64,000 bases of DNA from Hexactinellida sp. DTS-2022 (taxonomy: Eukaryota; Porifera; Hexactinellida): positions 2,728,001 through 2,792,000 of the forward strand of contig JAPNXP010000006.1 in NCBI GenBank assembly GCA_028753945.1. Reading direction: 5' to 3'. The position numbers and the translations under genes were made by a program. Below the pieces are notes generated by a model, which had not been told where the DNA came from, searched no databases, and was given only the letters and a program-made list of their open reading frames with translations. Shown piece by piece: positions 11,016-62,000 of the stretch (positions within the stretch are counted from its first letter, which is position 1; the number at the start of each line of letters is the position of its first letter).

Positions 11016-11618
11016 CTAAACTACGGTATTATCGAATAGCTGATGCTCTTCCAGTAGCTTATTAACAGCACTTAAATTAGTACTCATAGAGTTAATATAA
11101 TGCTCTATGTCTTTAAACAGTTGTCCCCTGCCTCCTTCATCTCCTTGTATTAGCGTAGCTATGAGTTTATCCTTGCTAGGGGCTATGTTAACAAGCATAT
11201 ACACCAGACCCCGGATAATGAATCCATGGTACGGTTTGAGAGATAGTCCGTAGGCATAGTACGCATCTTGAGGGAGGGAAGTGTGATCCGAAGTTATAAG
11301 TTGAGATAGGAAATGATAAATAAACTCAACTGCTCGTTTCAACCATATCAAAGATAGGCATATAGTGGGATCTGGCTCTAAAGATTTATTGAGAATCAAT
11401 TTATGTACGAAAGTGTATTTAGTCCTGTCAAGTTCGTATCTCTGCTGTAATACATCAATACTCCCCACAACCGAGTCCTTAGCTCGAGATAGAACAGGCC
11501 CCAGTAGATCTGTGAATGTTATGAAGGTAGTACATGCATTCAGGAACTGTGATGTGGGTATAGGACTATTCTCTTCAACTGATTCGAAACGATTCTCGAT
11601 TTGTTTGAAATAATTCAT
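11016..11618 (-). CDS. Glycolipid transfer protein (GLTP) domain protein
   Basis: A single-exon 200-residue protein spanning essentially one GLTP fold, which in known members carries glycosphingolipids or ceramide-1-phosphate between membranes in the cytosol. Recognised blocks are FLNACTTFITFTDLLGP (25-41), IWLKRAVEFIYHFL (91-104, with Trp92 that stacks on the sugar in known GLTPs) and LKPYHGFIIRGLVYML (127-142, with His131 of the conserved YHG). The usual Asp/Asn/Lys head-group cluster, expected near 48-56 in KDSVVGSIDVL, looks altered: Ser and Val replace Asn and Lys, so ligand choice may differ. The length fits GLTP (about 200-210). The ATG at 11618 is the first in frame. It is flanked by transposon DNA but is intact, so probably a host gene. 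Confidence 0.88.
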   Translation of the reverse strand: MNYFKQIENRFESVEENSPIPTSQFLNACTTFITFTDLLGPVLSRAKDSVVGSIDVLQQRYELDRTKYTFVHKLILNKSLEPDPTICLSLIWLKRAVEFIYHFLSQLITSDHTSLPQDAYYAYGLSLKPYHGFIIRGLVYMLVNIAPSKDKLIATLIQGDEGGRGQLFKDIEHYINSMSTNLSAVNKLLEEHQLFDNTVV

Positions 11619-12100
11619 GCGAGTATTATTAATTAACTTAAGTTTCTAGTTGTAAGTTAATTAATGGGAGAACTAACTTGTGCAGTATCAAACCAATTAA
11701 ATCAGGAGTTCTTAACCTGGGGGAAATCAATTTAGACAAAAATTAATAACAATAATAAAACTTGAATAAAATAATGCCAATAAGCAGTTATAGCCATCAC
11801 ATTGATGCTAACCGTGCTAGTTGTTAGAACTTAGAATTATTATTATTATCTGTTAATAATCAAATTGATGTTTTGCACTATTGTATGCTAATTATGCAAC
11901 CAGCAGACAACTAATAAATTGTATGTTCAAGGCTACTATTTCCGTAAACAAATGAAGGGGAAAATCGGGTAGAGTGAACAGGCCAAAAGGGGAAATGACA
12001 TAAAAAGGTTAAGATCCCCTGATTTTTTATTACAAAAAGCCATAGTATACTATATAAAAGCCATTTCACCGCTTTGGACCAGGAATAAGATAAAGGTAGA
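11619..12100. other. 5' flank of the GLTP-like gene; no other feature
   Basis: AT-rich sequence containing the likely promoter of the minus-strand gene. A TTAATTAA-rich segment lies at 11625-11665, but no clear TATA element stands out. No other gene is supported. Confidence 0.4.
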
Positions 12101-13811: not shown

Positions 13812-13828
13812 AATAATTACGGGATACA

Positions 13829-13996
13829 GACAATTCGTGACAAAGACAATTCGTGACAAGACAATTCGTGACAGAGACAATTCGTGACAGGACAATTCGT
13901 GACAGAGACAATTCGTGACAGGACAATTCGTGACAGAGACAATTCGTGACAGGACAATTCGTGACAGAGACAATTCGTGACAGGACAATTCGTGAC
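13829..13996 (+). repeat. Tandem array of GACAATTCGTGACAG, left MULE arm
   Basis: Eleven units of 15-16 bp, the last truncated, lie just inside the left terminus. Units alternate between endings CAG and CAGA. There are no spacers, so it is not CRISPR-like. Arrays just inside MULE ends often hold transposase-binding sites; that role here is inferred. Confidence 0.95.
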
Positions 13997-14063
13997 AATT
14001 TTAATATACTACATAGGACTCTCACTATAGACACGGGTCATAATGTATGCTCCCAATTGCAAA

Positions 14064-14323
14064 TACCGTATTTCTCCGAATAAGCGCCCGACGCTTATTG
14101 TTTTCGTGGACCAATTTAATCCTGATTTTTTTGAAAAATCCAGAAAATAATATTTTGGTGGGTTCCATTGGTTTTCAGCGACAGTATACCTACCGTAGTT
14201 GCCAAAATCAATGTAATTACTGCCCAGATATTTATTAATGTGTTATAATTTACTATACCAATGCCATTTTTATTGACCCAGCACTTATTAAATCCCCCGG
14301 CGCTTATTCGATTCAATACGATA
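14064..14323. mobile_element. MITE M2 copy inside the left MULE arm
   Basis: It starts TACCGTATTTCTCCGAATAA and ends CGCTTATTCGATTCAATACGATA, homologous to the free-standing M2 element at 49216-49477. The same copy is present in mirror image in the right arm at 17114-17371, so it has become part of the MULE's terminal repeats. Confidence 0.82.
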
Positions 14324-14490
14324 TTTATGTAACTTGAGACAAGCATACTGTTTGTTAACTAATTGAAAAAGGTAAAGTCTATTATGAATGATGTCTATGT
14401 TAATATGAATCTTAATGAATGTATATAATTGGTGTCATTGTGAGGCAAGTACGTATACTAATAATGATCAAGGAATGAGTCAAAGGAATT

Positions 14491-14871
14491 ATACCCATGA
14501 ACCTAATTGCGCACTAGCAAATTTTTGCTAAAAGTTGCGCACCTCTGGGTGTGCATTACGCAAACCAGATGGAGATCTGGCGACAACTACAATTCGTACT
14601 ATAGTTAATTAAAAATGAACACTTTTCAATCTGGTCATATTAGAGATAACTTGTAAATAGATTATAGAATCTATGTAGAGTGCCAAATATTTATCAAAGA
14701 ATTTAGAGTGACAAAATATACAATTCTTTCCTAATATGTATTGTTCAAGTAGTCAAATATGTTTATGATTTCCTTGTTATATACTACAATACCACTATAT
14801 ACTATAGTATACGTGCAACGAAATTCTTATCCACTGGAAATACAATATTCAAGATACTTTATTATTGATAT
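14491..14871 (+). promoter_or_regulatory. MULE internal 5' region upstream of transposase
   Basis: The 380 bp between the left arm and the start codon is unique within the element. It has an inverted pair at 14510-14552 (TGCGCACTAGCAAATTT and AAAGTTGCGCA). It presumably holds the transposase promoter; several TATA-like stretches occur at 14750-14815, but none can be assigned with confidence. Confidence 0.35.
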
Positions 14872-16929
14872 ATGAATTATATGGATATTCCTTGGTCTCT
14901 TTTTGCCAATACTCCCTTTGGTAGTGATTATACCAACATAAATTCAAAAGGTTTGGCCAATGAATCGGACATTGTTCAACTACGAAATAAAATCACTGAA
15001 ATGGACGCATTAACCTTCCGAGCGCTAGTTAAACGGAAGAAAACTACCCGATTATTACTGGCTAAATATTTAACTATTCTTCAAACAAACTCTACATCAA
15101 TAACCGATGCTTTCAGCATACTTATTGAAATTAGCGGCAATAGTGAAGTTGTTATTCTCAGAATTGTTCAAGAAGAGATTGGTGCCAATACGAGTGTAGA
15201 TCTCTTTGTTTTTGCAATATTGCAGGGTTTTCCACTTGTTTGGAAAGATACCCATTTATTTACAGAACTGAGAACTTTGATAGACCAAACTTTGATAGTT
15301 TATCTGGAACAACAAGCTCTAAATGATCAGGCTGCAGCAGTCAACTCAAGTATCATCGAAATACTAAGAGATTTGTCATCAAATGGTCAAAATGAAAAGA
15401 TCATTGAAAATGTTGACATTAGCTCAGAATCTGAATCTATTTTGGAAGATTGTATAAATCAAGATGAATCTACTTCGTACCTTGAACGTAGAGAAGAAGT
15501 TGATAATGAAACAGAAATGAAATTTTGCAAAACAGAGCGAGGCAAACCTTGCATTCTGGAAAAAGGTTATACATATACAAAGCATCGTGTCTCTTTAAAT
15601 ACAATTCAATGGCAATGTGTAGAGAGAAAATCATGTAGAGCAAGGATACACACCATTGATTCAAAGGTCGTTAAAAGGTCCAATGAACATACCCATGAAC
15701 CTAATTCTAAAATATTTCATTGTAATGAGGTTAAAGCCGGAATCAAACGAAGAGCAGCAGAATCTCAAGAGCCAACTCATTCAATTGTTGCCAGCAAGAT
15801 GTCGAAATTGGAGGAAGAATCTGCTGTTTCTCTTCCCAGGTTGGATAGTTTGAAGAGAACTTTATGCCGAGCGCGTAAGAAGGCAGAAAATGTCCCTTCC
15901 GAACCAACTTCACTAGATGAGCTTCAAATCCCAGAAGTTTATACAAGGACTAGTAAAGGCGAACCTTTCTTGTTGTATGATTCTGGCTCCGATGCTGAAA
16001 ACACAAGAATTATTATTTTCGGAACTCAATCCAATCTAGCAACACTGAATACTTCCAGTATATGGTTAGCAGATGGAACATTCAAGGTGGCACCGAAGTT
16101 ATTTCTTCAATTATATGTTATCCATGGATTAAAGGGGGGGCCAGATCCTTTCGAAAATGGACATATTTTGCCAAGCTTATTTGTATTATTGCCATCAAAA
16201 TCTGAGAACATATACAACATAATGTGGCGCAAAATAAAGGATTTATGTCCAACAGCTTGTCCTTCACACATTATCGTCGACTTTGAAAAGGCATCAATTA
16301 ATGCTTTTAGAGAGAACTTTCCTCACACAACAATCAAAGGGTGTTTTTTCCATTTGACCCAGAATGTGTGGCGGAAGATCCAAGAATTTGGTCTACAGTC
16401 GCGATATACCCAAGATCCTATTTTTGCATTAAAACTCAGGATGCTACCAGCACTTGCGTTTGCCACTCCGACGGACGTACCTGATTTATTTAGGGAGGTG
16501 TTTATGGAATTGCCGACAGAAGCATATGATTTGGCGATCTATTTTGAAACAACCTATGTTGGAAGACATATTTCAAGCTCAATTCATGTTCCAAGCATGT
16601 TTCCAATTGAAATGTGGAATAACCATCAACTGGTGAATCATGGTATTCCAAGAACCACAAACGCAATAGAGGCTTGGCATAGATCGTTCAACCATTTAAT
16701 GTCATGCCAACATCCCTCCATCTGGAAATTCATTAACCTATTAAAAAAAGAGCAAGGTCTGGTTGAAATTAAACGAGCATTTTATATGAGTGGAAGAAAT
16801 CCAGCTAAAAGGATGAAATATCAAGACCAAGAAAAGGCTCTAAAGATCCTGATTGACGGTTACCTAACCCGCCCGAAGTTAGAGTTTTTAAAAGGAATTG
16901 CTTACAGATTTGAATTCTCCTCACAGTAA
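14872..16929 (+). CDS. MULE transposase with FLYWCH zinc finger
   Basis: Intact 685-residue transposase. Residues about 218-275 form a FLYWCH-type zinc finger (GYTYTKHR, then WQCVERKSCRARIH, then a terminal HTH) that should bind DNA. Residues about 385-610 are the MULE RNase H-like domain. The catalytic triad is most likely Asp401 (in WLADGTFK), Asp470 (in IIVDFEKAS) and Glu600 (in TTNAIEAWH), with the expected CFFHLTQNVWRK block at 490-501. The N-terminal 200 residues are Leu- and Glu-rich and unrecognised. It is the only gene between the arms, ends 17 bp before the right arm, and has no frameshift. Function is inferred to be cut-and-paste transposition in the nucleus. Confidence 0.95.
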   Translation: MNYMDIPWSLFANTPFGSDYTNINSKGLANESDIVQLRNKITEMDALTFRALVKRKKTTRLLLAKYLTILQTNSTSITDAFSILIEISGNSEVVILRIVQEEIGANTSVDLFVFAILQGFPLVWKDTHLFTELRTLIDQTLIVYLEQQALNDQAAAVNSSIIEILRDLSSNGQNEKIIENVDISSESESILEDCINQDESTSYLERREEVDNETEMKFCKTERGKPCILEKGYTYTKHRVSLNTIQWQCVERKSCRARIHTIDSKVVKRSNEHTHEPNSKIFHCNEVKAGIKRRAAESQEPTHSIVASKMSKLEEESAVSLPRLDSLKRTLCRARKKAENVPSEPTSLDELQIPEVYTRTSKGEPFLLYDSGSDAENTRIIIFGTQSNLATLNTSSIWLADGTFKVAPKLFLQLYVIHGLKGGPDPFENGHILPSLFVLLPSKSENIYNIMWRKIKDLCPTACPSHIIVDFEKASINAFRENFPHTTIKGCFFHLTQNVWRKIQEFGLQSRYTQDPIFALKLRMLPALAFATPTDVPDLFREVFMELPTEAYDLAIYFETTYVGRHISSSIHVPSMFPIEMWNNHQLVNHGIPRTTNAIEAWHRSFNHLMSCQHPSIWKFINLLKKEQGLVEIKRAFYMSGRNPAKRMKYQDQEKALKILIDGYLTRPKLEFLKGIAYRFEFSSQ

Positions 16930-17113
16930 ACAGAAATAAATAAATAAATTCCTTTGACTCATTCCTTGATCATTATTAGTATACGTACTTGCCTCACAAT
17001 GACACCAATTATATACATTCATTAAGATTCATATTAACATAGACATCATTCATAATAGACTTTACCTTTTTCAATTAGTTAACAAACAGTATGCTTGTCT
17101 CAAGTTACATAAA

Positions 17114-17371
17114 TATCGTATTGAATCGAATAAGCGCCGGGGGATTTAATAAGTGCTGGGTCAATAAAAATGGCATTGGTATAGTAAATTATAACACATT
17201 AATAAATATCTGGGCAGTAATTACATTGATTTTGGCAACTACGGTATGTATACTGTCGCTGAAAACCAATGGAACCCACCAAAATATTATTTTCTGGATT
17301 TTTCAAAAAAATCAGGATTAAATTGGTCCACGAAAACAATAAGCGTCGGGCTTATTCGGAGAAATACGGTA
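17114..17371. mobile_element. MITE M2 copy inside the right MULE arm
   Basis: Mirror image of the M2 copy at 14064-14323, ending GAAATACGGTA. Having it at the same position in both arms means one arm was copied from the other after M2 inserted. Confidence 0.82.
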
Positions 17372-17438
17372 TTTGCAATTGGGAGCATACATTATGACCT
17401 GTGTCTATAGTGAGAGTCCTATGTAGTATATTAAAATT

Positions 17439-17588
17439 GTCACGAATTGTCCTGTCACGAATTGTCTCTGTCACGAATTGTCCTGTCACGAATTGTCTCT
17501 GTCACGAATTGTCTTGTCACGAATTGTCTGTCACGAATTGTCTCGTCACGAATTGTCTCGTCACGAATTGTCTTGTCACGAATTGTCT
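17439..17588 (-). repeat. Tandem array of CTGTCACGAATTGTC, right MULE arm
   Basis: Ten units on the complementary strand, with spacer dinucleotides varying (CCTG, CTCTG, CTCG, CTTG). The left arm has eleven. Confidence 0.95.
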
Positions 17589-17604
17589 GTATCCCAATAA
17601 TTAC

Positions 17605-18117
17605 GTATATGGATTTAACTTGTTAAATCTTACTCTATTGATTCTAATCGCGATAATTATATTGATTTAACTAATAAATTTCGGCTGGCTTCTATCTAAT
17701 TGTAGTATTACAATACAATGAATAAAATAAAATAATATAATATAAGGGATTTGTTGACTTTACTCAACTCACCGTGGATAACATTGCTAAATTAAATAAC
17801 TAATAATATAATTTATTATCAATACATAATGAATGAATGAATGGCATTAAACTCTAGATGGTTTATGATAGAAACAAACTTCAAATTTATCTACCGTTCC
17901 TTGTGACTCGGACCAATTAACAAATGGTTCTTGACACCTGAGGCGTTGATCACTGGCGAAAAAATCCCAAAAATAAAACCACAATGAAAAAAATCCAAAA
18001 TTGCAGCCTTTGCCGACAGCATGTTCCATTGGAGGCACTATCAATAAACCACCAACAAAATATAGTGCCCACCAAAGGAACATGCGTGGGCACAGGCTGC
18101 AATTTTGGATTTTTTTA
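17605..18117 (+). repeat. Dispersed repeat R1, copy 1, right part, with foldback H1
   Basis: R1 resumes after the MULE. It matches 58190-58635 in reverse orientation, and parts of 52210-52652 and 53860-53975. It ends in foldback H1: arms at about 17987-18041 and 18062-18117 (CAAAATTGCAGCC, then GCATGTTCC.TTGG.GGCACTAT and its complement) separated by about 20 bases. The open frames here are not genes. Confidence 0.8.
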
Positions 18118-23851: not shown

Positions 23852-25765
23852 GTATAGTTTCAGATAATTATCCGCTTAACGTTAATCTCTTCAAATTACT
23901 TGGGCAAAGTAAGGAACTTTTATCACATGTGCCACATCCTACTGATAGTGAACGCTCCCTTTTCTTTTTATTCGATTTTGTGCACATAATAAAGTGTACC
24001 GTATTGCCTTGAATAGTAGCCGGGGCGATTATTGTTTTCTAGGCTATTTTCTGACCAATAATTTTTGTGACTTTTCGAGAATATCACATGTTGATACAAA
24101 ATATTAGTATTAGTCGGTTGGTAATCGTATTGCCATTAAAATTCAATAAATATATTTACTCCGGGCAGTGATAGTAAAATGTTATTTGCCAATTTGGGAG
24201 GGCGATTATTCAAGGGGGGCGATTATTCGAGGGGGGGCTACTATTCAAGGAAATACGGTATTAGAAATAATTCGGATAATTCAAAAAGACTTCAATTGTA
24301 CTTTCCTTTTTCCAAATTTTGAAGATATCCTCAACTCTAATTATCCAATGAGATTGTCTCAGCCTCTCAGGCAGTTTTTCAGGTAGATTTTTATTTTATT
24401 TCAAATTAGAGGTCGATATTTGTTGTACATCTGTTATATGTTTTATGTTTCATCAATATTTACATAGGACTTGAGGCGACAGTATAAATCTCAACAGTTT
24501 TCAGTTGCAAAACTTGCACCGAAGTTGACTTACAAGTCTTGTTGGCCATCCGCCCTAGAAAGGCAGAATGTGAGCCTTGCTCTGAGGATATTCGATGATT
24601 CAAATGTAGCTGCCCTTACTATTCATCAATCCAATGTAGACCAAATTGACCAGATACAGACTAATACTTTCATTAAACTGATTAGCCGTGTTTGGAAAAT
24701 ATTTAATATTAATACCCCTTGGAAAGGCTGCCGTATCAACGATCAGGATAGCTTGCCATTAAAGATTAATGACCCCCGCTTTAAGTTCTTATCCTCAATA
24801 GTTCGTTGGTTAGAAAACTGGAGACTATTACCATATCATCAAGGCAAATTAACACCTCAAACATTCACCAGCTTTCGGCATTCATGTCTAACGCTACCCA
24901 AACTGGTTGAATATTTAACTGGTGATTGTGGCTTTTCTTATGTGCTTTCTTCATTTGTTCAGAATGACCCTATCGAACATCGTTTTGGACTGTATCGACA
25001 GATGTCTGGATCAAATTATAATGTATCTGTTTGCCAGGTAATGGAGAGCGAAAGAACGTTGAAGTTATCCAATATCCTTAAACTTTATAAGCGGCAGACT
25101 ATTGTTCGAAAGGATAGGGCTTCCTTCAAGGAATTTCTAAATACATTCGTAATAGAACAAGATAACCCTACTGATTGTAGCGAGACTCAAGACTTAACAA
25201 TCTATTTATCAATCATCACAATGGACACAGTGGACCCAGATTTAGAAACACAACAAGCCTTGGCTTTTATTGCTGGTTACGCAGCCTTTTCAGCAATGAA
25301 AAAGTTGTCAAAAACATCGGAATTGTGCATTGATTGTACTTCGTTTCTATGTGAGGATAAATCTCTGGACGTTGAAGAAATTCAACCAACTTTTCAATTA
25401 ATTCATCTTTCAGATCGTGGTGGGCTGAAGTGGCCCTCGAAACAAGTTTTGAGTGCAGTTTTCACCCTATGGAAAATATTTGTCGATATCGAGCATTCTC
25501 CTCTTCTCCTGAAAGATTTTCTCATTTCACACTCACGAGCTAAACTAGTTCAGCTCACTATCCTTAAGCTAGAAAGTGAAGGCTGCGGCGATTGAACTTA
25601 TGAGTGTTCACATTGTTTCTATGAAGGAAAAGAAGTGTTACATGGAATATTAGTAATTGCAAGCAATTGTTTTCTCAATAACATGGCGAAGAACATCAAT
25701 TCGTATAGGATACAAAGCCATTCGAAAGAACCTAGAAGGAAGATCCTCAAACTTAGTTCGAAATA
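23852..25765 (+). pseudogene. P/THAP9-like transposase relic A, C-terminal half
   Basis: It begins within the RNase H-like region (DNYPLNVNLFKLLGQ, about 23856), runs to a TA site filled by MITE M1, resumes at 24261, and is probably spliced near 24380-24468 into a 374-residue open frame (24471-25595). That frame holds LTPQTFTSFRHSCLTLPKL, the family signature NDPIEHRFGLYRQMSGSN, LAFIAGYAAFSAMKK, a Cys cluster CIDCTSFLC, and DRGGLKWPS. A TGA at 25593 ends it, but the same frame continues with YECSHCFYEGKEVLHG to a TAA near 25765. That continuation resembles the C-terminal zinc-binding tail of the family, so the TGA is probably a nonsense mutation. The N-terminal THAP domain is missing. Confidence 0.85.
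23999..24258. mobile_element. MITE M1, copy 2, inserted in P relic A
   Basis: CCGTATTGCCTTGAATAG to CTACTATTCAAGGAAATACGG, flanked by TA at 23997-23998 and 24259-24260. Removing the element with one TA restores a continuous reading frame across the site (IIKCIRNN), which demonstrates the 2-bp TA duplication. Confidence 0.9.
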
Positions 25766-27425: not shown

Positions 27426-29614
27426 CATAGCATTCTATACATAAGGCAATGGTGCTGATTGATGGACTTGGACCAGGGATTGGTTAGGTCAGTCAAATTA
27501 AATTTTGAGTAAAGCTTATTTACTGCTGGCATTTAGCATTGTGCATCCTAAACTAACCATTATAATTCATTCTACACCATTTTGCACCAAAAATGGTACA
27601 TATGAAGGAATGTCGAAAACTTGTGATTATCTAATTTTTAACCAACCATAATATTTATATATTATTTTACTAAGTTAAAACTTTTTTAAATCACTGTTAA
27701 ATTCATTTCAAGACACTATCTTCATCAGAAACGTTCCCCAACAGTACAATTCATTTGAAACTTCTAATAGCAAGTCTTGTGTTGTCCCAGGCTGCAAGTC
27801 TAATTATAAAAGCCAAGATGAGTCTACCTCCGCTTTTCATTTCCCAAGAGACCCGAAGTTACTTGAAGAATGGTTCAGGGCAATTCCACGGCCACGGAAG
27901 GACTATGAAACCAACAAGCAGATGAGGGTAAGTATCTATAATTTCTATTTATTGATTGCCATATTTACATTAGTTTCTTTAGGTATGCATTCGTCATTTC
28001 AAAGAAGATGACATCGAAAGGACCATATCCTACAATGACGGGGTTCATACTGTTACAGTTTCCAGAGAGAGAATAGCTCTGAAGAAGACAGCAGTACCCA
28101 GCATTTTTCCCAACTGTCCTTCCTATCTTTCTGAATTCAATTCCAAGCCAAAGAGACTATGCCTAGATGACAAAGAACGACTGCTGGTGGAGTCTGCATA
28201 CTCCAAGAGCATAACTGACAACGAAGGAACGGTGGATAAGTTCCTAGTTAATTCATATTCTGATCTTCTTTCTAAGCTAAATTTAATCGACCTACCAAAC
28301 GGCTGGATAACTACTGTGTCTAATAACACCCCTTTATCTTTTATAAAAATCGTTATTTTAAAAACCGGACCTTTCATCGACCGATCTGTATTAGTTAACG
28401 ATGATTTGTACATCAAAGCATTTGATAATAAAAACGTCACCATTCCAATCTCGCGAATTTTTATTAATGACACTCGCCAAGTTGAGACCATCCTCGATGA
28501 AGTAGATACATTTTCACACTTACTTCAAACTATTAACTCTCAAACTGAATGTTCTATTAACAACCATATAAAACTTGCTATCCATGAACTCGAAAGTGCA
28601 ATTCAGCTTGTTGATGGTGACTCGATAGACCTAGACATAGATGATTTACATTGCAGTAACGAATCTCTGAGTATTTCATTCCACTTTTTAGTTGGACAAC
28701 TGAGAAATTTGATAAATGCTAAAAGTCGTCGACGGTATAATATTTTAACTCAAGTATTTTCACTAAAAATTGATGGAATATCACTATTATCTACCAATCT
28801 CTCATCATAATGTATGAAATATTTTTGAAAATCGATAACCATTCACATTTAAGTAAACTATTTTACGAGTGATCCTGCCGTCGGAATTTGGTTCAGTTGT
28901 CACTTATTTTTGTAGAAGAAAAGTATAGTGAAATATGGAGGCAATGGTGTGTTTGTATGATTCCAAAATGGGTAATTCTAAAATTTTTTATACTACTGTA
29001 GCTAATTGTATTTTATCGAAGAAGGTTAGAAACTTTAATTCAATAGTTGTTGGTCGAGATAATAGCAAACTTAAAAAATTCAGTACATAATTCTTCTATT
29101 CTTATAGATAGCTTCCTGACATGCCGATGTACCAGTGCGCATCTACTACCATCATTTGACTGTATTCTCTACATTACTATCATTTAGACGAGGTCACGAG
29201 GAGCTCCACTAACACCTACAATCAAGCCGCTCATTCAGGACACATCGCAACCACATTCTCTCCCCTGTCGTCATAGATGTACTACTGCCTAACTGCTCTT
29301 CCTATAGAACTCAGATCACTATTCTATTAATTTACCTTCATACTACGTATTATCTTTGAGTGTTGCTTTTATACTTATTTAATGTTATGATTCGTATATT
29401 TATATATATAAAATACATGAAATAAAAAATATATCCTTACAATTCGTAATTTTCTTATAAGGGTGGTGGATTATCAATTATTTCCCTTCACATTGATAGT
29501 CTACATTAATTTAGAGCTTTATTGATTTAAATCTAAAACCAAAGTAACTGACCTAACCAATCCCTGGTCCAAGTCCATCAATCAACACCATTGCCTTATG
29601 TATAGAATGCTATG
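27426..29614 (+). mobile_element. P-type element B, internally deleted, 7-bp TSD
   Basis: 2189 bp with long inverted termini beginning CATAGCATTCTATACATAAG and continuing through GATGGACTTGGACCAGGGA. It is flanked by an exact 7-bp duplication ATCTGGC (27419-27425 and 29615-29621). Coding sequence corresponds to the N-terminal THAP half of a P/THAP9-like transposase plus a short stretch near 28930-29080 resembling its C-terminal tail (TVANCILSKKVRNFNS). The catalytic middle is missing. So this is a deletion derivative, analogous to internally deleted P elements. A diverged copy of its right terminus is at 37730-37793. Confidence 0.9.
27743..28810 (+). pseudogene. THAP-domain protein of P element B (no catalytic domain)
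   Basis: Two exons. Exon 1 (to 27927) contains CVVPGCKSNYKS and FHFPRDPKLLEEWFRAI; a 55-bp intron (27928-27982, GTAAGT..TTTCTTTAG) is followed by VCIRHFKEDDI, completing the C2CH zinc site of a THAP DNA-binding domain (Cys codons 27778 and 27793, then the Cys and His of VCIRH after the intron). About 275 residues follow, ending in ISLLSTNLSS with stop at 28808. The rest aligns with the region between THAP and the RNase H-like domain in relic C. There is no in-frame ATG in exon 1, so an upstream exon or a lost start must be assumed. If expressed it could bind element ends without cutting, like P-element repressors; this is inference. Confidence 0.72.
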
Positions 29615-31476: not shown

Positions 31477-34400
31477 ATACACATACATAAGAACTCAATA
31501 ATTCTATTTAAATATATTTCTTTTATCAAGGGATTACAGATAGCAAGCTTGATTATGAACTTGAACTTGAAAGATTCGCTGTATCGACTTTTGAAGAATT
31601 TACTTAAAATTTCAAACTATACACTACCAGAGAATTGGTTCTTATGGTATGATTGGTATCCCTCTGATACAACTTCGAGGATATTTAAACCTCGGATCAC
31701 TTCTTAACGTTGAATCATATATCCTTATAGATTCAAGTCTTTGCGCAAAGGGTTAGTTTATATGCTTACATAGATTCTAAATTGGTTTCTATGTACCCGG
31801 AAATACTTACTACATTAAAATATATATCTACAAATAGTTTATATAGAAAATATTCGGCCTAATATGTTCGGAATCCCTTACTAACCGAAACCACTGTACT
31901 TTTTGTTGCAGCCCAAGGTCCATTTTTGATTGACACTCTAATTTACCCCTTCGTAAGTTAGAAATTTATAACACATTTATAAAATTCTTTCCTTTAGGAT
32001 TTTATGAAGATGTTCAGGTGGCTCTATCCCCGCAACAAGTTAAAGACATTCGTGAAATTGATTCATATATCAAAGATATTTCGAGCTACCATCAAAATTA
32101 TTCCCAAAAGAAATCAAACAAGCTATTGTTAATCTTCAATCTTCAATTGATAAGTTTGATCTTAATAATGAACCTGATACATTATTAACAATCCCCGTCT
32201 CCAATTTATATTATGCCAACTCGAAAATATCTTGCTTCCCAAGCAAAGATACAGATACAATGTGATTACTCTTACACTTTCTTTAAAGGCCCAACTTATT
32301 TCTCCTGCATGTTATAGTTTTCTTCAAACTTCTCAATGTCTTACACTTCCACATCAAAGTACATTACGAAATCTTACTTCAAAATCTGGTTTGGAATATG
32401 ATTTTAGAGAATTTCTAATTAAATCAACGGCGAAGTTTACTAAACAACAGCGTCAGCTCGTATTAAACATCGATGAGGTTTATGTACAGTCTGACTTTAG
32501 CTATAAAGGAGGAAAGATTTATGGCTCATCCAGTTCGAATGTAGAAGTAGCTTCAAAAACTGTACTTGCTTTCATGGTGACTAGCCTTTTCAATAAATGG
32601 AGTGAAATAGTTCTTCTATATCCACTTGCCTCTACGGATGCTAAAGAAGTATTTGAGATAGTGACGACTGTCATACCTGATATTGAAAAGTGCGATCTCA
32701 ATGTTGTGCTATTATGTTCAGACAACTTACCGCTAAATCAAAATTTATTCAAATTATTCTCGTACAAGCATATAATTGAACGATCAGTTCCCCATCCTTG
32801 TCACCCCAATCGTCCTCATTTTTGATTTTGTCCACAACATTAAATGTATTCGTAACAATTGGCTTAACCAATCGATCCTCAGTGTTGTTTTATTTTTCCT
32901 TCTTTTGAAGATACTATTAACTTGAATTTACCAGCTGCTGTATCCTGAGCATCCTTTGAAGAAACAGTATTAGGAATCAATACAGACTTGAGCACTCTTC
33001 CACCTTGAAGCAAGCATATAAATTGACCGCGAAGGTTTGCTGGCCTACCAATTTAGAGAGGCAAAATGTTAATCTTGCGTTGGATGTGTTTAGCGAATCG
33101 ACAAACGCTACCTTGAGGCTAAATAAACAAATTCAGGGTGCGCTATTGTAACTCAGACTCCTGAATTTCTAGATGTTATAATTCATATTTGGAAAATCTT
33201 TAATGTTAACAGTCCATTGAAAGGTAACCGCTTAAGAGATTCCTTTTCAAACCCACTCATTAATAATGATGAACGTTTTTCATTTCTTAGTAATGTTGTT
33301 CAATGGCTAGATACTTGGAAATTGCTACCTGGTAGGGTTGGAAAGTTAACACCCCAAACTTTCTCTAGTTTCAGACATTCTTGTTTAGTACTTCCTCAAA
33401 TAGTTAACTATCTTACAAGTGACACATGTGGTTTCGCTTATATTCTATCCTCCCGTCTTCAGAACGATCCCCTTGAACACCGTTTTGGCGTTTATCGACA
33501 AATGTCAGGTGCTCAGTATAGTATATCTGTCCTCCAAATTCTTGAAAGTGAGCGCAGACTAAAGCTTTCTTCAATATTAAAGTTATTTCAGAAGGATACT
33601 TCTGGAGAAATGTCACTTAAAGACTTTATTAAGACATTTACCTCGGAAGAAGAACCGGTTGAAATAACTCCATTAGAAGATTTCTTGTCGCTGTTGGACA
33701 ATTCTAATCCCCTTCCTGAAGTAGATGAAACTACTCTCCTTGCATTGGCATTTGTAGCTGGATACGCTGTCCATTCTACATTCTCTAAATACAAAGATAG
33801 GTGTGGGAATGCTTTGCTAGTTTAACCAAACAGAGAGATGATCATTTTGAAAATCAAGATAGAGTGAATCTACTCATTCAAATAACAGATCGAGGAGGAT
33901 TAAAGTATCCAGCAATGGAGGTTCTAGAATCGTGCATTCTCCTTTGGAAAATCTATACTGCAATTGAAGTTCAATCGATATTATTCAGCAAATTTAATTT
34001 ATTCTTGTATCTCTCTCTACTATCAAAATAGAAGATACATCATCTTTGACATAATTTTGGAGAAGTAATTGCGACTACTGTCTCAAGGTAAATGGGATCT
34101 ATTGAAGAAAATACTTTGTACCATCTCTAATTGCATTCTGTCAAATAAAGTTCGCAACTTAAATTCACTCAAAGTACTCAAATTTTCAAAACGAACTTCT
34201 AATATTGAGGACAACAGGAAATTAATAGAAATTTAAATCTTAATTAATATAATTGTTTCAGTATATGATTGAATACATATGTTATCAGTTTTGAGTGTCG
34301 GAGTTAATGATGAATACTCCTCTGTTTCAAAATTATCGTTATACAATACCATCTACTTCCCATCCATGGTCCAAAGTAGTTGTAAGTCCTGTATTACGAA

Positions 34401-46999: not shown

Positions 47000-48325
47000 A
47001 TGACCTTAGGAGAATTTCCTACTTACTTTTCAGTTGCTACATGCTACATAGGAATATTTTCAGCTGTTTTTATTGTGAGCTATCCATCACCAACTCAAAA
47101 AGAGCTCATTGATGAAGGTCTACTAGATTACTACACGCTTCCAATATTTGCATCAATTAACCATCTCACTCGAACCGTTGGACTACTTTTCGTTCCCATA
47201 CTTGTTCAATGCAACTTTGGTAGTATATATATCATAACAACAATGGGTTGTGTCATTGGGATGATTGGCTGGATTTGCATTCTTATGGCACGGTCCGCAT
47301 TACTGTTGATTGTTGGTTCAAGTTTTCTAGGATTCTATACAGGCGTATTAGCCTTATTTACTTTTACTTATATTCCAGAAATTTGTTTAGAAAGTCAAGT
47401 TAAAGTACTAAGTGGGGGAATGGGATTTTGCGTTAGAATCGCAGTTTTTTTCACTTATCTGATTGGGATTTGGATCACATATGATTGGATGGCGATAGTT
47501 GGATTATCCATGATATGCGCTTTCTGTGTATTATATCTTTTCAATCCAATTTCACCTCCATGGTATGTTCATCATAATTTGCTACACAAAGCCAAAGATA
47601 CAATAGAATATTTACATGCCAAAGAAGTGGATGCAGATTCTGAAATTCAGAAAATTCTAAATCGAATGCCTATTCGAAACGTTACTATCTTTGGTAAATT
47701 AAAGCAAATTGTGGGGTGGAAAGTATTAAAACAACTGTTGATCATGTCCAGTATTGGTTTTTTAAAAGAATTCAGGGGTCACGAAGCTATGGTATCCTTA
47801 TCTTCTCACATTCTAGAAAATCAAAATGCATTGGATCCCAAAGTAGCCTCACTCTTTTATCCTATTTTTCTCATTGTAGGAGCAGTAGTATCTCTTAGTA
47901 TTTTGAATCGCAGTAAATTGAAGTTTCAGTCAATGGTAGCTGCTTCACTTCAAGCCCTAGCCCATATATCAATGGCAATTTTCTACTTTATGTCTGAAAA
48001 TAAATTTAATTGTCAGGAGATCGATTTTCAGAGTCGAACATGTCAGCTAATCTCAATCTGGCCTATTGTGAATGTTGCTTTGTATTCTTTTTCATTTGCA
48101 ATTGGATGGGGATTGATTTATTACAGCCTAATTGGGATAATGTTTCAAACGCACAGACAATGGTCTTCTGCGGTTACTGACACCTTTACCAATTTGAGTT
48201 CTTACACTGTGATTCTGGCATTTTATTATCTACTTCACTCCATTGGAGGATTTTGGACATTCTTGATATTCTCATTTGAACACATAGTGACTATTTTCTA
48301 CATCTATTTCGCCATTAATGTGTGA
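47000..48325 (+). CDS. MFS sugar-porter-like transporter
   Basis: An intronless 441-residue membrane protein with about 11-12 hydrophobic segments and a central cytosolic loop (about 195-240). It fits the sugar porter branch of the major facilitator superfamily (SLC2/Tret1-like). FTYIPEICLESQVKVLSGG (124-142) stands where porters have Y-x-x-E-i..R-G; NPISPPWYVHHN (185-196) replaces the PESPRWL motif; ILNRSKLKFQS stands for the second GRR loop; and FAIGWGLIYYSLIGIMF precedes the last helices. Several signature residues are changed, so substrate specificity cannot be inferred. The ATG at 47000 gives a short N-terminus directly before helix 1. There are no stops. It is probably a host gene, perhaps retrocopied because it has no intron. 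Confidence 0.82.
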   Translation: MTLGEFPTYFSVATCYIGIFSAVFIVSYPSPTQKELIDEGLLDYYTLPIFASINHLTRTVGLLFVPILVQCNFGSIYIITTMGCVIGMIGWICILMARSALLLIVGSSFLGFYTGVLALFTFTYIPEICLESQVKVLSGGMGFCVRIAVFFTYLIGIWITYDWMAIVGLSMICAFCVLYLFNPISPPWYVHHNLLHKAKDTIEYLHAKEVDADSEIQKILNRMPIRNVTIFGKLKQIVGWKVLKQLLIMSSIGFLKEFRGHEAMVSLSSHILENQNALDPKVASLFYPIFLIVGAVVSLSILNRSKLKFQSMVAASLQALAHISMAIFYFMSENKFNCQEIDFQSRTCQLISIWPIVNVALYSFSFAIGWGLIYYSLIGIMFQTHRQWSSAVTDTFTNLSSYTVILAFYYLLHSIGGFWTFLIFSFEHIVTIFYIYFAINV

Positions 48326-49065: not shown

Positions 49066-50077
49066 CAGGTATCCCTCTTTTTACGCGGTAGATGCGTTCC
49101 TTCAAAAGCCCGCGGTAAAGGAAATCGCGTAAAAAAACGGTTCATTCTCATAGTAACACATATTAAAACATTAGATGCGTTTCCAAATATTATCAACATC
49201 GAATAAAATTTTAAATACCGTATTTCCCCGAATAAGCGCCGGGGGCTTGAATAAGCGCCGGGTCAAGAAAAATGACATTGGTATAGTAAAATTAAACACA
49301 TTAGTTACTAAAGGTGTGTTATTACATTGATTTTGGTAACTACGGTATGTATACTGTCGCTGAGAATCATTAGATCCCACCATAATATTAAATTCTGGAT
49401 TTTTCAAAAAAAATTCAGGACAAATTGGGTCCACGAAAACAATAAGCGCCGGGGCGCTTATTCGGGGAAATACGGTACCTAGTGTTTAAGCACTCAAAAA
49501 TCCAACATCCGGACCTCTCAGATAGCCTAGGTTCCCGTGTGTATGTTAATTCCATGGGAATTCCCATGGGATTTCCAATATGGTTTTGAATGGAAATTAT
49601 TTTAACCTATGGGATTCCTAAAAGAAAACAACTTGTGAGAATACTTGGGAATTCCCACAGAAAAGGAAATTGTGTTGTGAAGGGAATTAAAATTCCCTTC
49701 ACACCGCAATCCTACACCTTCGGGTACCTCCCACAACTGGGTATCTCTAGTGTGAATAGTGAAGCAAATGTGTATTCATTTGACCGATAATATATTTGGA
49801 TGAACTTAATATACGACAAATACATATTCCTAACTATCTACTATGAAGTACTATCTCTAAATCATCATTTTTTTTTGGAAATGTAGAACCGCTTTGTTAT
49901 GACTAAATCTTAAAAATTATCGAAAATATCCATAAAAAAGAGAATTTATTGAATGAAAATAATAGATAAACGGCGTAAAACGAGTTGAGGATCGCGTAAA
50001 AAAGTTTTGGTCATAAAAAATTGTTCCGCGTAAAACGAAATCGCGTAAAAAAAAACCGCGTAAATCGAGGTATTTCC
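49066..50077. mobile_element. Tc1/mariner-like nonautonomous element
   Basis: It begins CAGGTATCCCTCTTTTTACG after a TA and ends with ACCGCGTAAATCGAGGTATTTC, an inverted match. CGCGTAAAACG and CGCGTAAAAAAA boxes occur near both ends. The right terminal CTGTA is lost. The interior includes a full M2 MITE (49216-49477) and a TGGGAATTCCCAT palindrome at 49553-49572. No transposase. Confidence 0.75.
49216..49477. mobile_element. MITE M2, complete free-standing copy
   Basis: Inverted termini TACCGTATTTCCCCGAATAA and TTATTCGGGGAAATACGGTA, with an internal second AATAAGCGCC box at each side. The same family is embedded in both MULE arms, appears solo at 9954-9991 and as a fragment at 40452. Confidence 0.9.
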
Positions 50078-53544: not shown

Positions 53545-53975
53545 ACCGTCTAATTTGCACCTGGGTTTATGATTTTTGATCAAATAGTTTTAACACCTAT
53601 TTAAACTAATTATGGCTCATTACATGAAATAATTAATATTTAACTTGATAAAATTTATATGTACGGATAGAGAATTAAATTCTACAGCTTTTGCCAAATC
53701 ACAAATGTTCAATTTGGCCTAGGTTTGTGCCATAATTGGGGTACCAATCTCCTGTGTTTCCTCACACTTCAGATTCAGTAAAACTGTTAAATCAATTTCC
53801 ATTGTTTCAGCTTACGATAATTCTATTGAATCTAATTCTATTGTTTCAACTTGTAATAATTATATTGATTTAACTTGTTAAATCTTACTCTATTGTTTCA
53901 ACTTGCGATAAATATATTGATTTAACTTATAAATTCCAGCTGGCTTCTATTTAATTGTAGTATTGTAGGGAAACT
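53545..53975 (+). repeat. Dispersed repeat R1, copy 3, with MULE and hAT empty sites
   Basis: It runs ACCGTCTAATTTGCACCTGG through CACACTTCAGATTCAGTAAA and TTTCAACTTGTAATAATTAT to CCAGCTGGCTTCTATTTAAT. It matches both sides of the MULE and hAT insertions in copy 1 without either insertion, so it acts as a paralogous empty site for both. An internal module TTGTTTCAACTTG(T/C)nATAAT is repeated three times. Confidence 0.82.
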
Positions 53976-58744: not shown

Positions 58745-60387
58745 AGCTAAGGCCCCATGGACATGATTTGCAGCGTATTAGTGGGACAGTTACTGGAATC
58801 CGTACAACCTGCTATTAAAGAGTGGCTCAAGAAGGATGAGAATACAGAGCTGACCATCACCAAGAGTAGGGAGTTTATTCGGCAGGGTTAAAGTAGTGCT
58901 GGCAGAGAAGGGCTACAAATACGACACAGGTTATCGCGATATGGGGCGTATCGCTCTGATGAGAGAACAGGAGGATAACCTGGGGACGAAGGAAAGGAAA
59001 CAACAGAGGGGTATCACACCAAAGATTCCCCAAGAGAGGATATCTTGAAGGTACACCAATATCCGCGAAAAGTTATGACCACCGAAGAAACTACAGTGGA
59101 ACCACCAAAAGAAATTCCAGGAGCACAACCTCAGGTCCTAAGTCTCGTTGTTTCATTTGCGGATCAGACAGACACCTTATAGCGCGGTGCCCCAGCAAGC
59201 GTTGCCCCCGATGTGGTGAGATAGGTCATGATATCTACCAATGCAAGAGCCGCAAGGAAGACGTCCTAGTTGCAACGGGTGAGGGGAAGGATTATCCAGA
59301 AGCGGCGGTAGTGGTACAAGTCCAATTCAGCGGTAAACCGATTGAAGTTATGCTGGATACTGGGGCCCAACCTTCGGTCATCGATAAGGGTACGGTGGAG
59401 AGATTGAAGTTAGCTTACCAAACAATGAATAGCAGAGTATACGGAGTTGGGAGGTTACCGATACATGTATGCGGTACGATGCAAGTGGAGATAGACATCG
59501 GAGGTAGCAGGATTATAAACCATCAGGTGGATATCCTGGATACCAGTACGGAAACTGTCATCCTAGGGAGAAATTTTCTGGCTCACTTTAGCGAAGTCTA
59601 CTTCGACGTTAAGGGTTTCAGGATTAAGCTAGATGAGTAGTGGTTGGAGACGCGGACGCTACTACAAGGAGGAAAAGCCTTGGCGCGTGCGGAAGTGGTA
59701 GAAATAGAATCCCCAGGCGAGCAAGATCAGGTTTTCGATATAGATCCGGAGCTATCTCACGATCAACGAATGGCAACGTGGGGTATATTGAGGAAAGACA
59801 AAACCGGTTTCGCAGTCAACCCCAAGTCCCCTACAGAGGTGCACGGAGTTGAACACCGGATAACCCTCATAGATCATCGTCCAATCAAATACCGCCCATT
59901 AAGAGTCTCTCCCTATACTGAGTCTGAAGTCTCTAGAGTCTAGACAGATAGAAGAAATGCTTTCGAATGGGATTATCAAACCGTCTGAGTCCCCATGGGG
60001 GAGTAGAATTATACTAGTGCGCAAGAAGGACGGATCTCAAAGGTTCGCGGTAGACTATCGCAGTCTGAATTCGGCCACGAAGAAGGACGCGTACCCGATG
60101 CCGGACTCAAAAGATATATTTAAAAGGCTGGAGGACAGCAGTATTTCTCTACCCTTGACTGTGCATCAGCCTATTGGAGTATCCCGGTTAGAGAGAAAGG
60201 TAAGGAAAGTACCGCATTCGTATCAACTAGGGGACAATTTGAATTCAACAGGATGCCGTTTAGACTGTGTAACTCACAAGCTACATATCAGAGAGCAGTG
60301 GATAATGCCTTGAAGGGAATCTCCAATGCACAAGCATTCGTAGACGACACGATTGTGCATTCTAGCGACTTCGAGGCACATCTAGGA
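58745..60387 (+). pseudogene. Gypsy retroelement relic, gag end to reverse transcriptase
   Basis: Gag C-terminus (SREFIRQG, frameshift, KVVLAEKGYKYDTGYRDMG at 58885-58945), then two CCHC knuckles CFICGSDRHLIARC and CPRCGEIGHDIYQC (59152-59240), then an aspartic protease with LDTGAQPSVID (59354-59387) and ILGRNFLAHF. An in-frame TAG at 59638 separates it from WLETRTLL and the RT region. RT blocks are NGIIKPSESPWGSRIILVRK (59965-60024), FAVDYRSLN, RMPFRLCNSQATYQRAVDNA and the catalytic box AFVDDTIVHSS (60334-60366). Frameshifts lie near 58888, 59935 and 60140. It is cut by a hAT-like element at 60388. Confidence 0.88.
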
Positions 60388-61147: not shown

Positions 61148-61349
61148 AGTAACAGTATTTCAATACCAAAATAGTACATTGTAGTGCTGGGGAGGAATTA
61201 TAGCAAAAATATATGTTAGGGGGTAATATCGTGACATTTGTTGGAAAAGGTTGGGAACCACTGGTTTAAACTATACAAATCACCACCAACTACCTATTAC
61301 ATAATTTAGATGCTAGAGTAAGAATTAACATGAAGTCAATATTCGGGAA

Positions 61350-61361
61350 TGGTATATAAAT
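61350..61361 (+). promoter_or_regulatory. Candidate TATA box for the integrase element gene
   Basis: GGTATATAAATG lies about 55 bp upstream of the ATG at 61410, a plausible core promoter position for a short 5' leader. There is no experimental support in the sequence itself. Confidence 0.45.
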
Positions 61362-62000
61362 GTGAGACTAGATTTCCTATTTATTCAATCATCCAATTGT
61401 TGTACTAAAATGCAAAATCATGAATTGCAATTTACTAATCTTGTAAATGCCAACAACAACATAAACAGCGTTCTCCTATCGCGCGAACAGTTCTCGGAGA
61501 TCGTCAATATCTTCTCTGCGCCATATCCCAATACTTCTGCAGCAGCTAGACAGCGTTTCTACAGGATACAGAAAAAGTACACCGTAAAGCATACCCAATC
61601 CTGTCAGATATTATACCAAAGTAGTTCTGATACCTCTACGCTGCTTCGAGTTCTTGCGAAGGAAGAACTTTTTGACGTATTCTCCCGCGTACACTGTGAA
61701 GGTGAGAAGCATCTAGGGAGAGATAGAATGGTTATCGAACTTAAAAAGCGATATTGTGGATACTCGAAGTCCGTAGTACAAGATTATGTCAACCTCTGTC
61801 AAGAGTGTCAACTTAAGAAGGGCAAAACGTATTTAAAGGTACCACTGTTAAACCTATTCACAGTCCAGAATTTGCATCGAGAGGTCAAGTTGATTTAATC
61901 GATTTCCAGAACACGGATCAAGCTAACAGACCTTATAATTTTCTTTTGGTGTACCAAGATCACCATACCAAGTTTCCGTAGGAGTTTGATGAACTTACAC

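What the first reader, a model, noticed from the sequence alone, without database searches (positions are those of the whole stretch)
13812..17604. Complete, apparently recent MULE with 9-bp TSD and a paralogous empty site
The sequence shows matching termini, a perfect 9-bp duplication AATAATTAC, near-identical 0.65 kb arms and an unbroken 685-residue transposase with a plausible D401/D470/E600 triad. Repeat R1 at about 53850-53880 carries the same sequence uninterrupted, so the exact insertion point and pre-insertion target can be read. Structurally complete MULEs are uncommon among animal genome relics, and this one may still be active.
Basis: partly seen in the sequence, partly recalled or inferred. 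Interest (0 to 1): 0.78.

Follow-up and report, generated by a model that had tools for sequence, protein, structure and literature searches.

The report
Foldback-type jumping gene in a sponge
This is a complete, cleanly inserted cut-and-paste DNA transposon of a known kind (a Mutator-like element with foldback-style repeated ends), in what is probably a glass sponge genome that holds many relatives of it; it is a good new example rather than a new kind of element.

Summary
Window 13821-17595 (3775 bp) is one transposon flanked by a perfect 9-bp duplication (AATAATTAC), with 670/649-nt inverted arms and an unbroken 685-codon transposase with FLYWCH and MULE domains; D401/D470/E600, C491xxH494 and W582 are in place. 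It is a Mutator-like element of the FLYWCH+MULE (Phantom/Muta) type with Foldback-type ends: an 8-nt terminal motif, then 11 and 10 tandem 15/16-nt units. It is not solitary: the 112-Mb genome, probably a glass sponge's, gave 43 matches to the arm; 16 of 20 loci that I read have both ends (11 with an exact 9-bp duplication). Related subfamilies carry their own versions of the unit. Both arms contain the same MITE-like insertion, so arms have been copied from one another and are a poor clock. Ordinary in kind; useful as a set for testing whether Phantom tandem repeats bind transposase.

The parts
13812..13820 (.). left copy of the 9-bp target site duplication AATAATTAC
17596..17604 (.). right copy of the 9-bp target site duplication AATAATTAC
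13821..14490 (+). left terminal inverted arm (670 nt), starting with GGGATACA
16947..17595 (-). right terminal inverted arm (649 nt)
13829..13997 (+). left tandem array: 11 units of GACAATTCGTGACA with period 15/16 (31-nt double unit)
17438..17588 (-). right tandem array: 10 units of the same word, period 14-16
14061..14326 (+). MITE-like insertion inside the left arm (28-nt imperfect inverted ends, 82%)
   Evidence: (I25); copies outside this family at 82-85%
17111..17374 (-). the same MITE-like insertion inside the right arm (99% to the left one)
   Evidence: (D4); right-arm limits mapped
14872..16929 (+). transposase ORF, 685 aa, single exon
14872..15498 (+). N-terminal extension of about 209 residues upstream of FLYWCH; no Pfam match
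15523..15696 (+). FLYWCH zinc finger (residues 218-275), presumed DNA-binding part
   Evidence: searches (E 6e-11; E 2.4e-3; E 5.5e-10) match solved FLYWCH domain 2rpr
16060..16365 (+). MULE transposase domain (Pfam stretch, residues 397-498) holding D401, D470, C491xxH494
16669..16671 (+). codon of E600, third catalytic residue; W582 lies 18 residues before it
16935..16940 (+). AATAAA just after the stop codon, a possible polyadenylation signal
   Evidence: read by eye
53826..53964 (+). paralogous copy of the interrupted host repeat, uninterrupted but lacking 4 nt at the target

Best explanation
A complete, structurally autonomous Mutator-like (MULE/IS256-lineage) transposon of the FLYWCH+MULE (Phantom/Muta) type with Foldback-type ends, in a probable glass sponge genome. 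Most likely mode of action: the transposase is made from its single exon; its FLYWCH finger recognises the repeated 15/16-nt word in both arms (inferred); several molecules bring the ends together (inferred); the D401/D470/E600 site cuts at the GGGATAC ends and joins them to host DNA with a 9-bp stagger, which repair turns into the 9-bp duplication (the duplication is shown, the chemistry is inferred from Muta1 and ISCth4). Arms gain and lose units and copy from one another during repair (variable unit numbers and the shared MITE-like insertion are shown; the repair route is inferred). Copies lacking the gene must be moved by a transposase made elsewhere (inferred). Whether this copy moves today is open.
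For: 9-bp TSD here, and an exact 9-bp TSD in 11 of the 16 other two-ended copies, with one of 10 bp, one of 8 bp, one of 9 bp with a mismatch and two with none (20 loci were read, 16 showed both ends). Pfam FLYWCH and MULE above their curated cut-offs. Catalytic and flanking residues have nearly the spacing of the experimentally active Muta1 (D214, D283, H307, W401, E419; PMC5225508): D401-D470 is 69 in both, D470-H494 is 24 in both, W582-E600 is 18 in both; D470-E600 differs (130 against 136). D401, D470, C491, H494 and W582 are invariant and E600 at least 90% in 34 aligned proteins, which I chose from the hits. The predicted fold (mean pLDDT 83, pTM 0.60) best matches ISCth4 transposase (6xgx_A E 2.6e-5, 6xg8_A 5.6e-5); the solved FLYWCH domain 2rpr is fifth at E 2.4e-3 and is also found by sequence (E 5.5e-10). 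Arrays of 4 to 19 units per arm in all 17 two-ended copies (up to two substitutions allowed per unit). An empty paralogue with the 9-mer uninterrupted.
Against: No expression, excision or polymorphism data. In this family no second full-length intact transposase was found among the scored matches: the C3 copy is frameshifted near residue 494 and its element is enlarged by other sequence; two of 16 other copies show no TSD. Binding of transposase to the units was not tested, and a search for co-variation between unit and transposase across 13 representatives was negative (Mantel r 0.14, p 0.18; FLYWCH part alone r 0.17, p 0.14). Placement in a tree with canonical Phantom proteins was not done. 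Whole-model similarity to ISCth4 is low (TM-score 0.21-0.27 by query length, 12-13% identity).
Confidence: 0.92

Rival explanations
1. A recently silenced relic: the copy looks intact because it is young or because its arms were homogenised, but its transposase no longer works or is not made, and any movement of the family relied on other copies.
For: It is the only intact full-length frame of its own family among the scored matches. Copies differ from one another by 1.73% on average in the arm (36 pairs with more than 200 aligned bases, among 11 elements), so the burst of the family is not brand-new. A sister subfamily has three loci with identical transposase stretches, which is where current activity is more likely.
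Against: Perfect TSD, arms 0.41% different inward of the array, and an open frame with all key residues.
Confidence: 0.4
2. A host gene derived from a transposase (domesticated FLYWCH protein) that happens to keep its old ends.
For: FLYWCH transcription factors of transposon origin are reported in animals (PMC10027918, passages); a long N-terminal extension is present.
Against: Intact ends, a perfect TSD and an uninterrupted paralogue show an insertion whose marks are still fresh; all catalytic residues are kept; domestication usually goes with lost ends and single-copy orthology (recalled, not from a call).
Confidence: 0.03
3. An assembly or annotation artefact: two unrelated repeats collapsed around an ORF.
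For: Long inverted repeats are hard to assemble (general knowledge).
Against: The same ends and arrays recur at 16 further sites, most of them with target site duplications, and the arms are not identical.
Confidence: 0.02

Closest known systems
Muta1 and Muta5 of Aedes aegypti (PMC5225508; passages, sections 6, 11 and 12)
   Same: FLYWCH+DDE transposase; 8-9 bp TSD; short terminal motif (10 bp in Muta1, 8 bp in Muta5) followed by nine subterminal tandem repeats (12 bp plus 3-4 bp spacers in Muta1, 15 bp in Muta5); many gene-less derivatives with variable repeat number; nearly identical spacing of D, D, H, W, E. The paper calls Muta1 a type 2 Foldback element.
   Different: Aedes transposases are 416-554 aa and Muta1 has two exons; here 685 aa, one exon, with about 209 extra N-terminal residues; arms here are longer (670/649 against 145 nt in Muta1), partly through a MITE-like insertion. 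Muta1 is shown to move in yeast; this one is not.
Tm1 of root-knot nematodes (PMC3169594; passages)
   Same: Phantom-type FLYWCH+MULE transposase inside Foldback-like arms with a variable number of about 14-bp tandem units; 9-bp TSD; gene-less derivatives.
   Different: Different unit sequence, asymmetric 7-bp outer motifs, 496-aa transposase; described there as inactive and decaying.
Phantom group of MULEs (group 20 of PMC6446971; passages)
   Same: MULE transposase with FLYWCH in some members, TSD 8-10 bp, TIR 18-613 nt or none.
   Different: Listed hosts are Platyhelminthes, Crustacea, Arthropoda, Tunicata and ichnovirus; the words sponge, Amphimedon and Porifera do not occur in the main text. 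Tree placement not tested here.
Galileo of Drosophila (P superfamily; PMC3688188, abstract and discussion)
   Same: Foldback-like long arms whose internal repeats hold transposase (THAP) binding sites; a working model for the arrays here.
   Different: Unrelated transposase (P element type).
ISCth4 (IS256 family) transposase, PDB 6xgx/6xg8
   Same: Best fold match.
   Different: Bacterial (recalled), 12-13% identity, whole-model TM-score only 0.21-0.27 by query length.

Membership tests
MULE superfamily | MULE transposase domain with DDE triad, CxxH and W | tested here: met
   Pfam PF10551 45.1 bits against cut-off 27.6; D401, D470, E600, C491xxH494, W582, spacing nearly as in Muta1
MULE superfamily | 8-11 bp target site duplication | tested here: met
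   9 bp here; 11 of 16 other two-ended copies exact 9 bp, one 8 bp, one 10 bp, one 9 bp with a mismatch, two none
MULE superfamily | long terminal inverted repeats (usual, not universal) | tested here: met
   670 and 649 nt
Phantom (subclass of MULEs) | N-terminal FLYWCH finger plus MULE domain (as stated in PMC3169594) | tested here: met
   note the extra 209 residues before FLYWCH
Phantom (subclass of MULEs) | groups with canonical Phantom transposases in a tree | not tested
   no canonical Phantom sequence was in hand; the named relatives outside sponges (firefly, seed beetle, aphid; FLYWCH+MULE) are 35-37% identical
Foldback-type element | long modular arms with short tandem repeats, variable between copies | tested here: met
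   4-19 units per arm over 17 elements
Foldback-type element | gene-less derivatives, some nearly palindromic | tested here: met
   L040 (1187 bp) and L042 (1039 bp) are two long arms with little between them; L041, L043 and L045 (656-756 bp class: 662, 756, 663 bp) are gene-less with unequal arms
Autonomous active transposon | transposase expressed and able to move the element | not testable with these tools
   no RNA, no second individual, no bench assay
Pack-MULE | captured host gene fragment | tested here: inconclusive
   only a MITE-like insertion was recognised in the arms; gene fragments were not searched for systematically

The most novel reading that the evidence does not exclude
The tandem 15/16-nt units are a multivalent transposase landing pad that has been kept throughout this lineage while each subfamily changed the middle letters of the word (common form GACNNNTNGNNNCA over ten consensus words), so that one sponge genome holds about ten transposase/array pairs, several with open genes, that recognise only their own ends. 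The N-terminal extension of the window's family would add a further contact or assembly surface.
Probability: 0.3. Interest if true: 0.6.

Novelty: new member of a known kind. Interest (0 to 1): 0.36.

Why it matters
Tandem repeats in Foldback and Phantom arms have been suspected to be transposase binding sites; PMC3688188 (2013; discussion) says that this was untested. Here one compact genome carries many related elements with open transposase frames, clear ends and distinct unit words, and the window's copy has uninterrupted paralogues of its target. That is a convenient natural series for binding and cross-mobilisation assays. It also extends Foldback-type FLYWCH MULEs to a probable glass sponge: the listings of my paper searches (an open-licence library only) and the passages that I saw of the Aphrocallistes vastus genome paper (PMC10282587: 'mule' 0 occurrences) showed no report of one there.

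Tried and rejected
Co-variation of unit and transposase: a Mantel test over 13 representatives gave r 0.14, p 0.18 (FLYWCH part r 0.17, p 0.14; remainder r 0.13, p 0.19), so no support. Seventeen loci had both a protein and a unit; I dropped L016, L021 and L028 as repeats of a subfamily already in the set and L030 (broken transposase, unit beginning with T) before the test; the near-duplicates L037/L038 and L036/L066 stayed in.

Idea that the N-terminal extension goes with array-type ends: rejected, because subfamilies without a match to the extension (for example L021, L022, L029, L032) have arrays too. Idea that convergent transposase pairs are two different cooperating genes: rejected for the two examined, which are inverted duplicates of one gene (L036 98.6%; L066 96.4%). 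N-terminal extension as a known domain: no Pfam family; its own search found one relative (P0001), though P0005 and partly P0003 share it by alignment; a separate model reached only pLDDT 60, so I ran no fold search on that model. Arm divergence as a clock: rejected because the arms copy from each other. Domesticated gene and assembly artefact: see rivals.
Full report
Anatomy. The element runs from 13821 to 17595 (3775 bp) between two copies of AATAATTAC (13812-13820, 17596-17604). The inverted arms are 670 and 649 nt. Each begins GGGATACA and continues as a tandem array of the word GACAATTCGTGACA at a period of 15/16 nt: 11 units on the left, 10 on the right; 19 of 21 units are letter-identical over 14 nt. 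Inward of the array the arms align over 491 bases with 2 substitutions and one 2-nt gap. The gene is one open frame of 685 codons, 14872-16929, ending 17 nt before the inner edge of the right arm, with AATAAA at 16935-16940 (by eye).

Protein. Pfam gives FLYWCH at 218-275 and MULE at 397-498, both above the curated cut-offs. In an alignment of 34 proteins that I chose from the hits, D401, D470, C491, H494 and W582 are invariant and E600 is at least 90% conserved. In the experimentally active Muta1 the corresponding residues are D214, D283, H307, W401 and E419, and changing any of them to alanine abolished transposition or cut it by 99.5% (PMC5225508); the spacings D-D (69), D-H (24) and W-E (18) are the same here, D-E is 130 against 136. 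An AlphaFold2 model (pLDDT 83, pTM 0.60) best matches the transposase ISCth4 (E 2.6e-5, low TM-score) and, at E 2.4e-3, the solved FLYWCH domain 2rpr. About 209 residues precede FLYWCH; they have no Pfam match and are seen in the nearest relatives (P0001, P0005, partly P0003, and the genome's own L011/L050 family, with weaker matches in L027, L030 and L034). They are modelled as a small helix-sheet part followed by a long helix (127-171), at mostly 65-82 pLDDT in the full model with a dip near 101-107, but only 60 on average when modelled alone.

Host. The window lies in a genome of 112.4 Mb in 18 contigs. A host gene about 2.2 kb from the element (11019-11627, minus strand) encodes a glycolipid transfer protein whose only named relative among 8 hits is from the glass sponge Oopsacas minuta (69%); 5 of the 120 listed transposase relatives are also Oopsacas proteins. 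I infer a hexactinellid host; no name was available. The gene's 5' end faces the element.

Family. The first 240 nt of the arm gave 43 matches, the two arms of one element counting apart (40 of 150 candidates were scored, so this is a lower bound). I read 20 loci from that list; 16 have both ends inside the stretch. Their lengths run from 514 to 7274 bp. TSDs: exact 9 bp in 11 of 16, 10 bp in one (in a simple repeat), 8 bp in one, 9 bp with one mismatch in one, none in two. Unit numbers per arm run from 4 to 19. Several copies lack the gene; L040 and L042 are nearly palindromic, L041, L043 and L045 have unequal arms. Two copies of 5342 and 5386 bp (L050, L051) belong to a sister family with 54-56% protein identity; one has an in-frame stop and the other a broken N-terminal part. 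The closest transposase copy, on C3, is 93% identical over 494 residues, then frameshifted, in an element enlarged to 7274 bp by inserted sequence. So the window's copy is the only intact full-length transposase of its own family among the scored matches.

Wider lineage. The protein matches 67 stretches (65 of 2170 candidates scored), of which 47 have no internal stop (some of these are still partial or frameshifted genes). I read the flanks (1.5 kb each side) of 26 further loci, L013-L038: 25 of 26 have at least one array of period 15-16 with four or more units (L027 does not). Each subfamily has its own word: GACTTTTCGTGACA, GACATTTCGTGACA, GACAGTTCGCTACA, GACAAATGGGTACA, GACATTTCGTTACA, GACAATTCGTAACA, GACAATTCGTACCA, GACAACTCGCATCA, and in L066 GACAATTCGCACCA. 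Over ten consensus words, written by me from the repeat finder's output, positions 1-3 (GAC), 7 (T), 9 (G) and 13-14 (CA) do not vary; single units do vary there, and the commonest form in L050 and the L030 form begin with T. Where ends were found they are GGGATAC or a close variant. In the GACTTTTCGTGACA subfamily L016, L017 and L018 have identical 1452-nt transposase stretches and different 9-bp TSDs: stronger evidence of recent movement than anything in the window.

Arms copy from each other. Positions 14061-14326 form a MITE-like unit with imperfect inverted ends. It occurs in both arms of the window's element (99%) and, whole or in part, in 14 of the 17 two-ended elements, and outside this family at 82-85%, including window 49212-49477 (40 of 892 candidates scored). 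I saw no match of it in the sister elements L050 and L051 (one search printed seven matches per locus, one search was capped, so this is not proof of absence). The simplest account is one insertion into one arm of an ancestor, followed by copying to the other arm. Hence low arm divergence does not date the insertion. Left-right differences within the 11 elements compared run from 0 to 3.5%; differences between elements average 1.73% over 36 pairs (range 0.43-4.0%).

Empty site. The element interrupts a copy of an abundant host repeat. All 40 scored paralogues of the joined flanks (of 2330 candidates in the first look) are continuous over 216-223 nt. Those that I examined letter by letter (L063, L064 and R1 at 53826-53964) lack four letters at the target. 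One paralogue, C16:3264751, has AATAATTACGTATAT uninterrupted and matches 175 of 194 bases without gaps. So the target existed in a variant of the repeat, and R1 is only an approximate empty site.

Mechanism. Shown: ends, 9-bp TSD, conserved catalytic residues, variable arrays, homogenised arms, gene-less copies. Inferred from relatives: cut-and-paste by a DDE reaction (Muta1, ISCth4) and recognition of the units by FLYWCH (by analogy with THAP sites in the repeats of Galileo, PMC3688188). A direct sign of co-evolution between unit and transposase was looked for and not found.

Verdict. It is a new member of a known kind in a little-studied host. What lifts it slightly above routine is the series of related elements with distinct unit words and open genes in one genome.

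Noticed in passing
G000:C13:451305-454058 (L066), C3:4095063-4097635 (L036); similar pairs on C3 (a second), C4, C6, C7, C11, C12, C18: Related MULE transposase frames occur as convergent pairs; in the two pairs examined they are inverted duplicates of one gene (96.4% and 98.6%), so the element contains a large palindrome over its own gene. The gap between the two matches is 42 nt in four of the pairs (C4, C6, C13, C18), as if one palindromic ancestor had multiplied.
   Followed up: partly
G000:C10:1598717, C5:1189398, C5:1246347 (L016-L018): Three loci with identical 1452-nt transposase stretches and different 9-bp TSDs: a sister subfamily (unit GACTTTTCGTGACA) that probably moved very recently.
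   Followed up: yes
L050:3593-4155 and L051:3623-4263: The sister elements of about 5.3 kb carry minisatellites of a 42-nt unit (GTACTTGTACTT...) next to the transposase.
   Followed up: no
L044:1599-3461: Two frames inside the 7274-bp copy on C3, one integrase-like by eye (no family search was run), apparently a nested mobile element.
   Followed up: no
window 13820 and 17605-17608, compared with the host repeat: The interrupted host repeat copy has four extra letters (CGTA or TACG) at the target compared with the paralogues examined; it could be the footprint of an earlier TA-targeting element. Shared by C16:3264751 and, with a change, C14:1635472.
   Followed up: partly
window 32181-32822, with frames at 24471-25592, 27986-28807 and 33130-33822: Piece of another transposase: TNP-like RNase H N-terminal domain (PF21787, E 3e-12); the neighbouring frames gave no Pfam match.
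   Followed up: no
window 58966-59637 and 61332-61895: Retroelement-like pieces: gag-type aspartyl protease with zinc knuckle, and integrase zinc-binding domain.
   Followed up: no
window 49212-49477: Free copy of the MITE-like unit that is also found in both arms of the transposon (84%).
   Followed up: yes
window 47000-48322: Sugar-transporter-like frame (PF00083), apparently an ordinary host gene.
   Followed up: no
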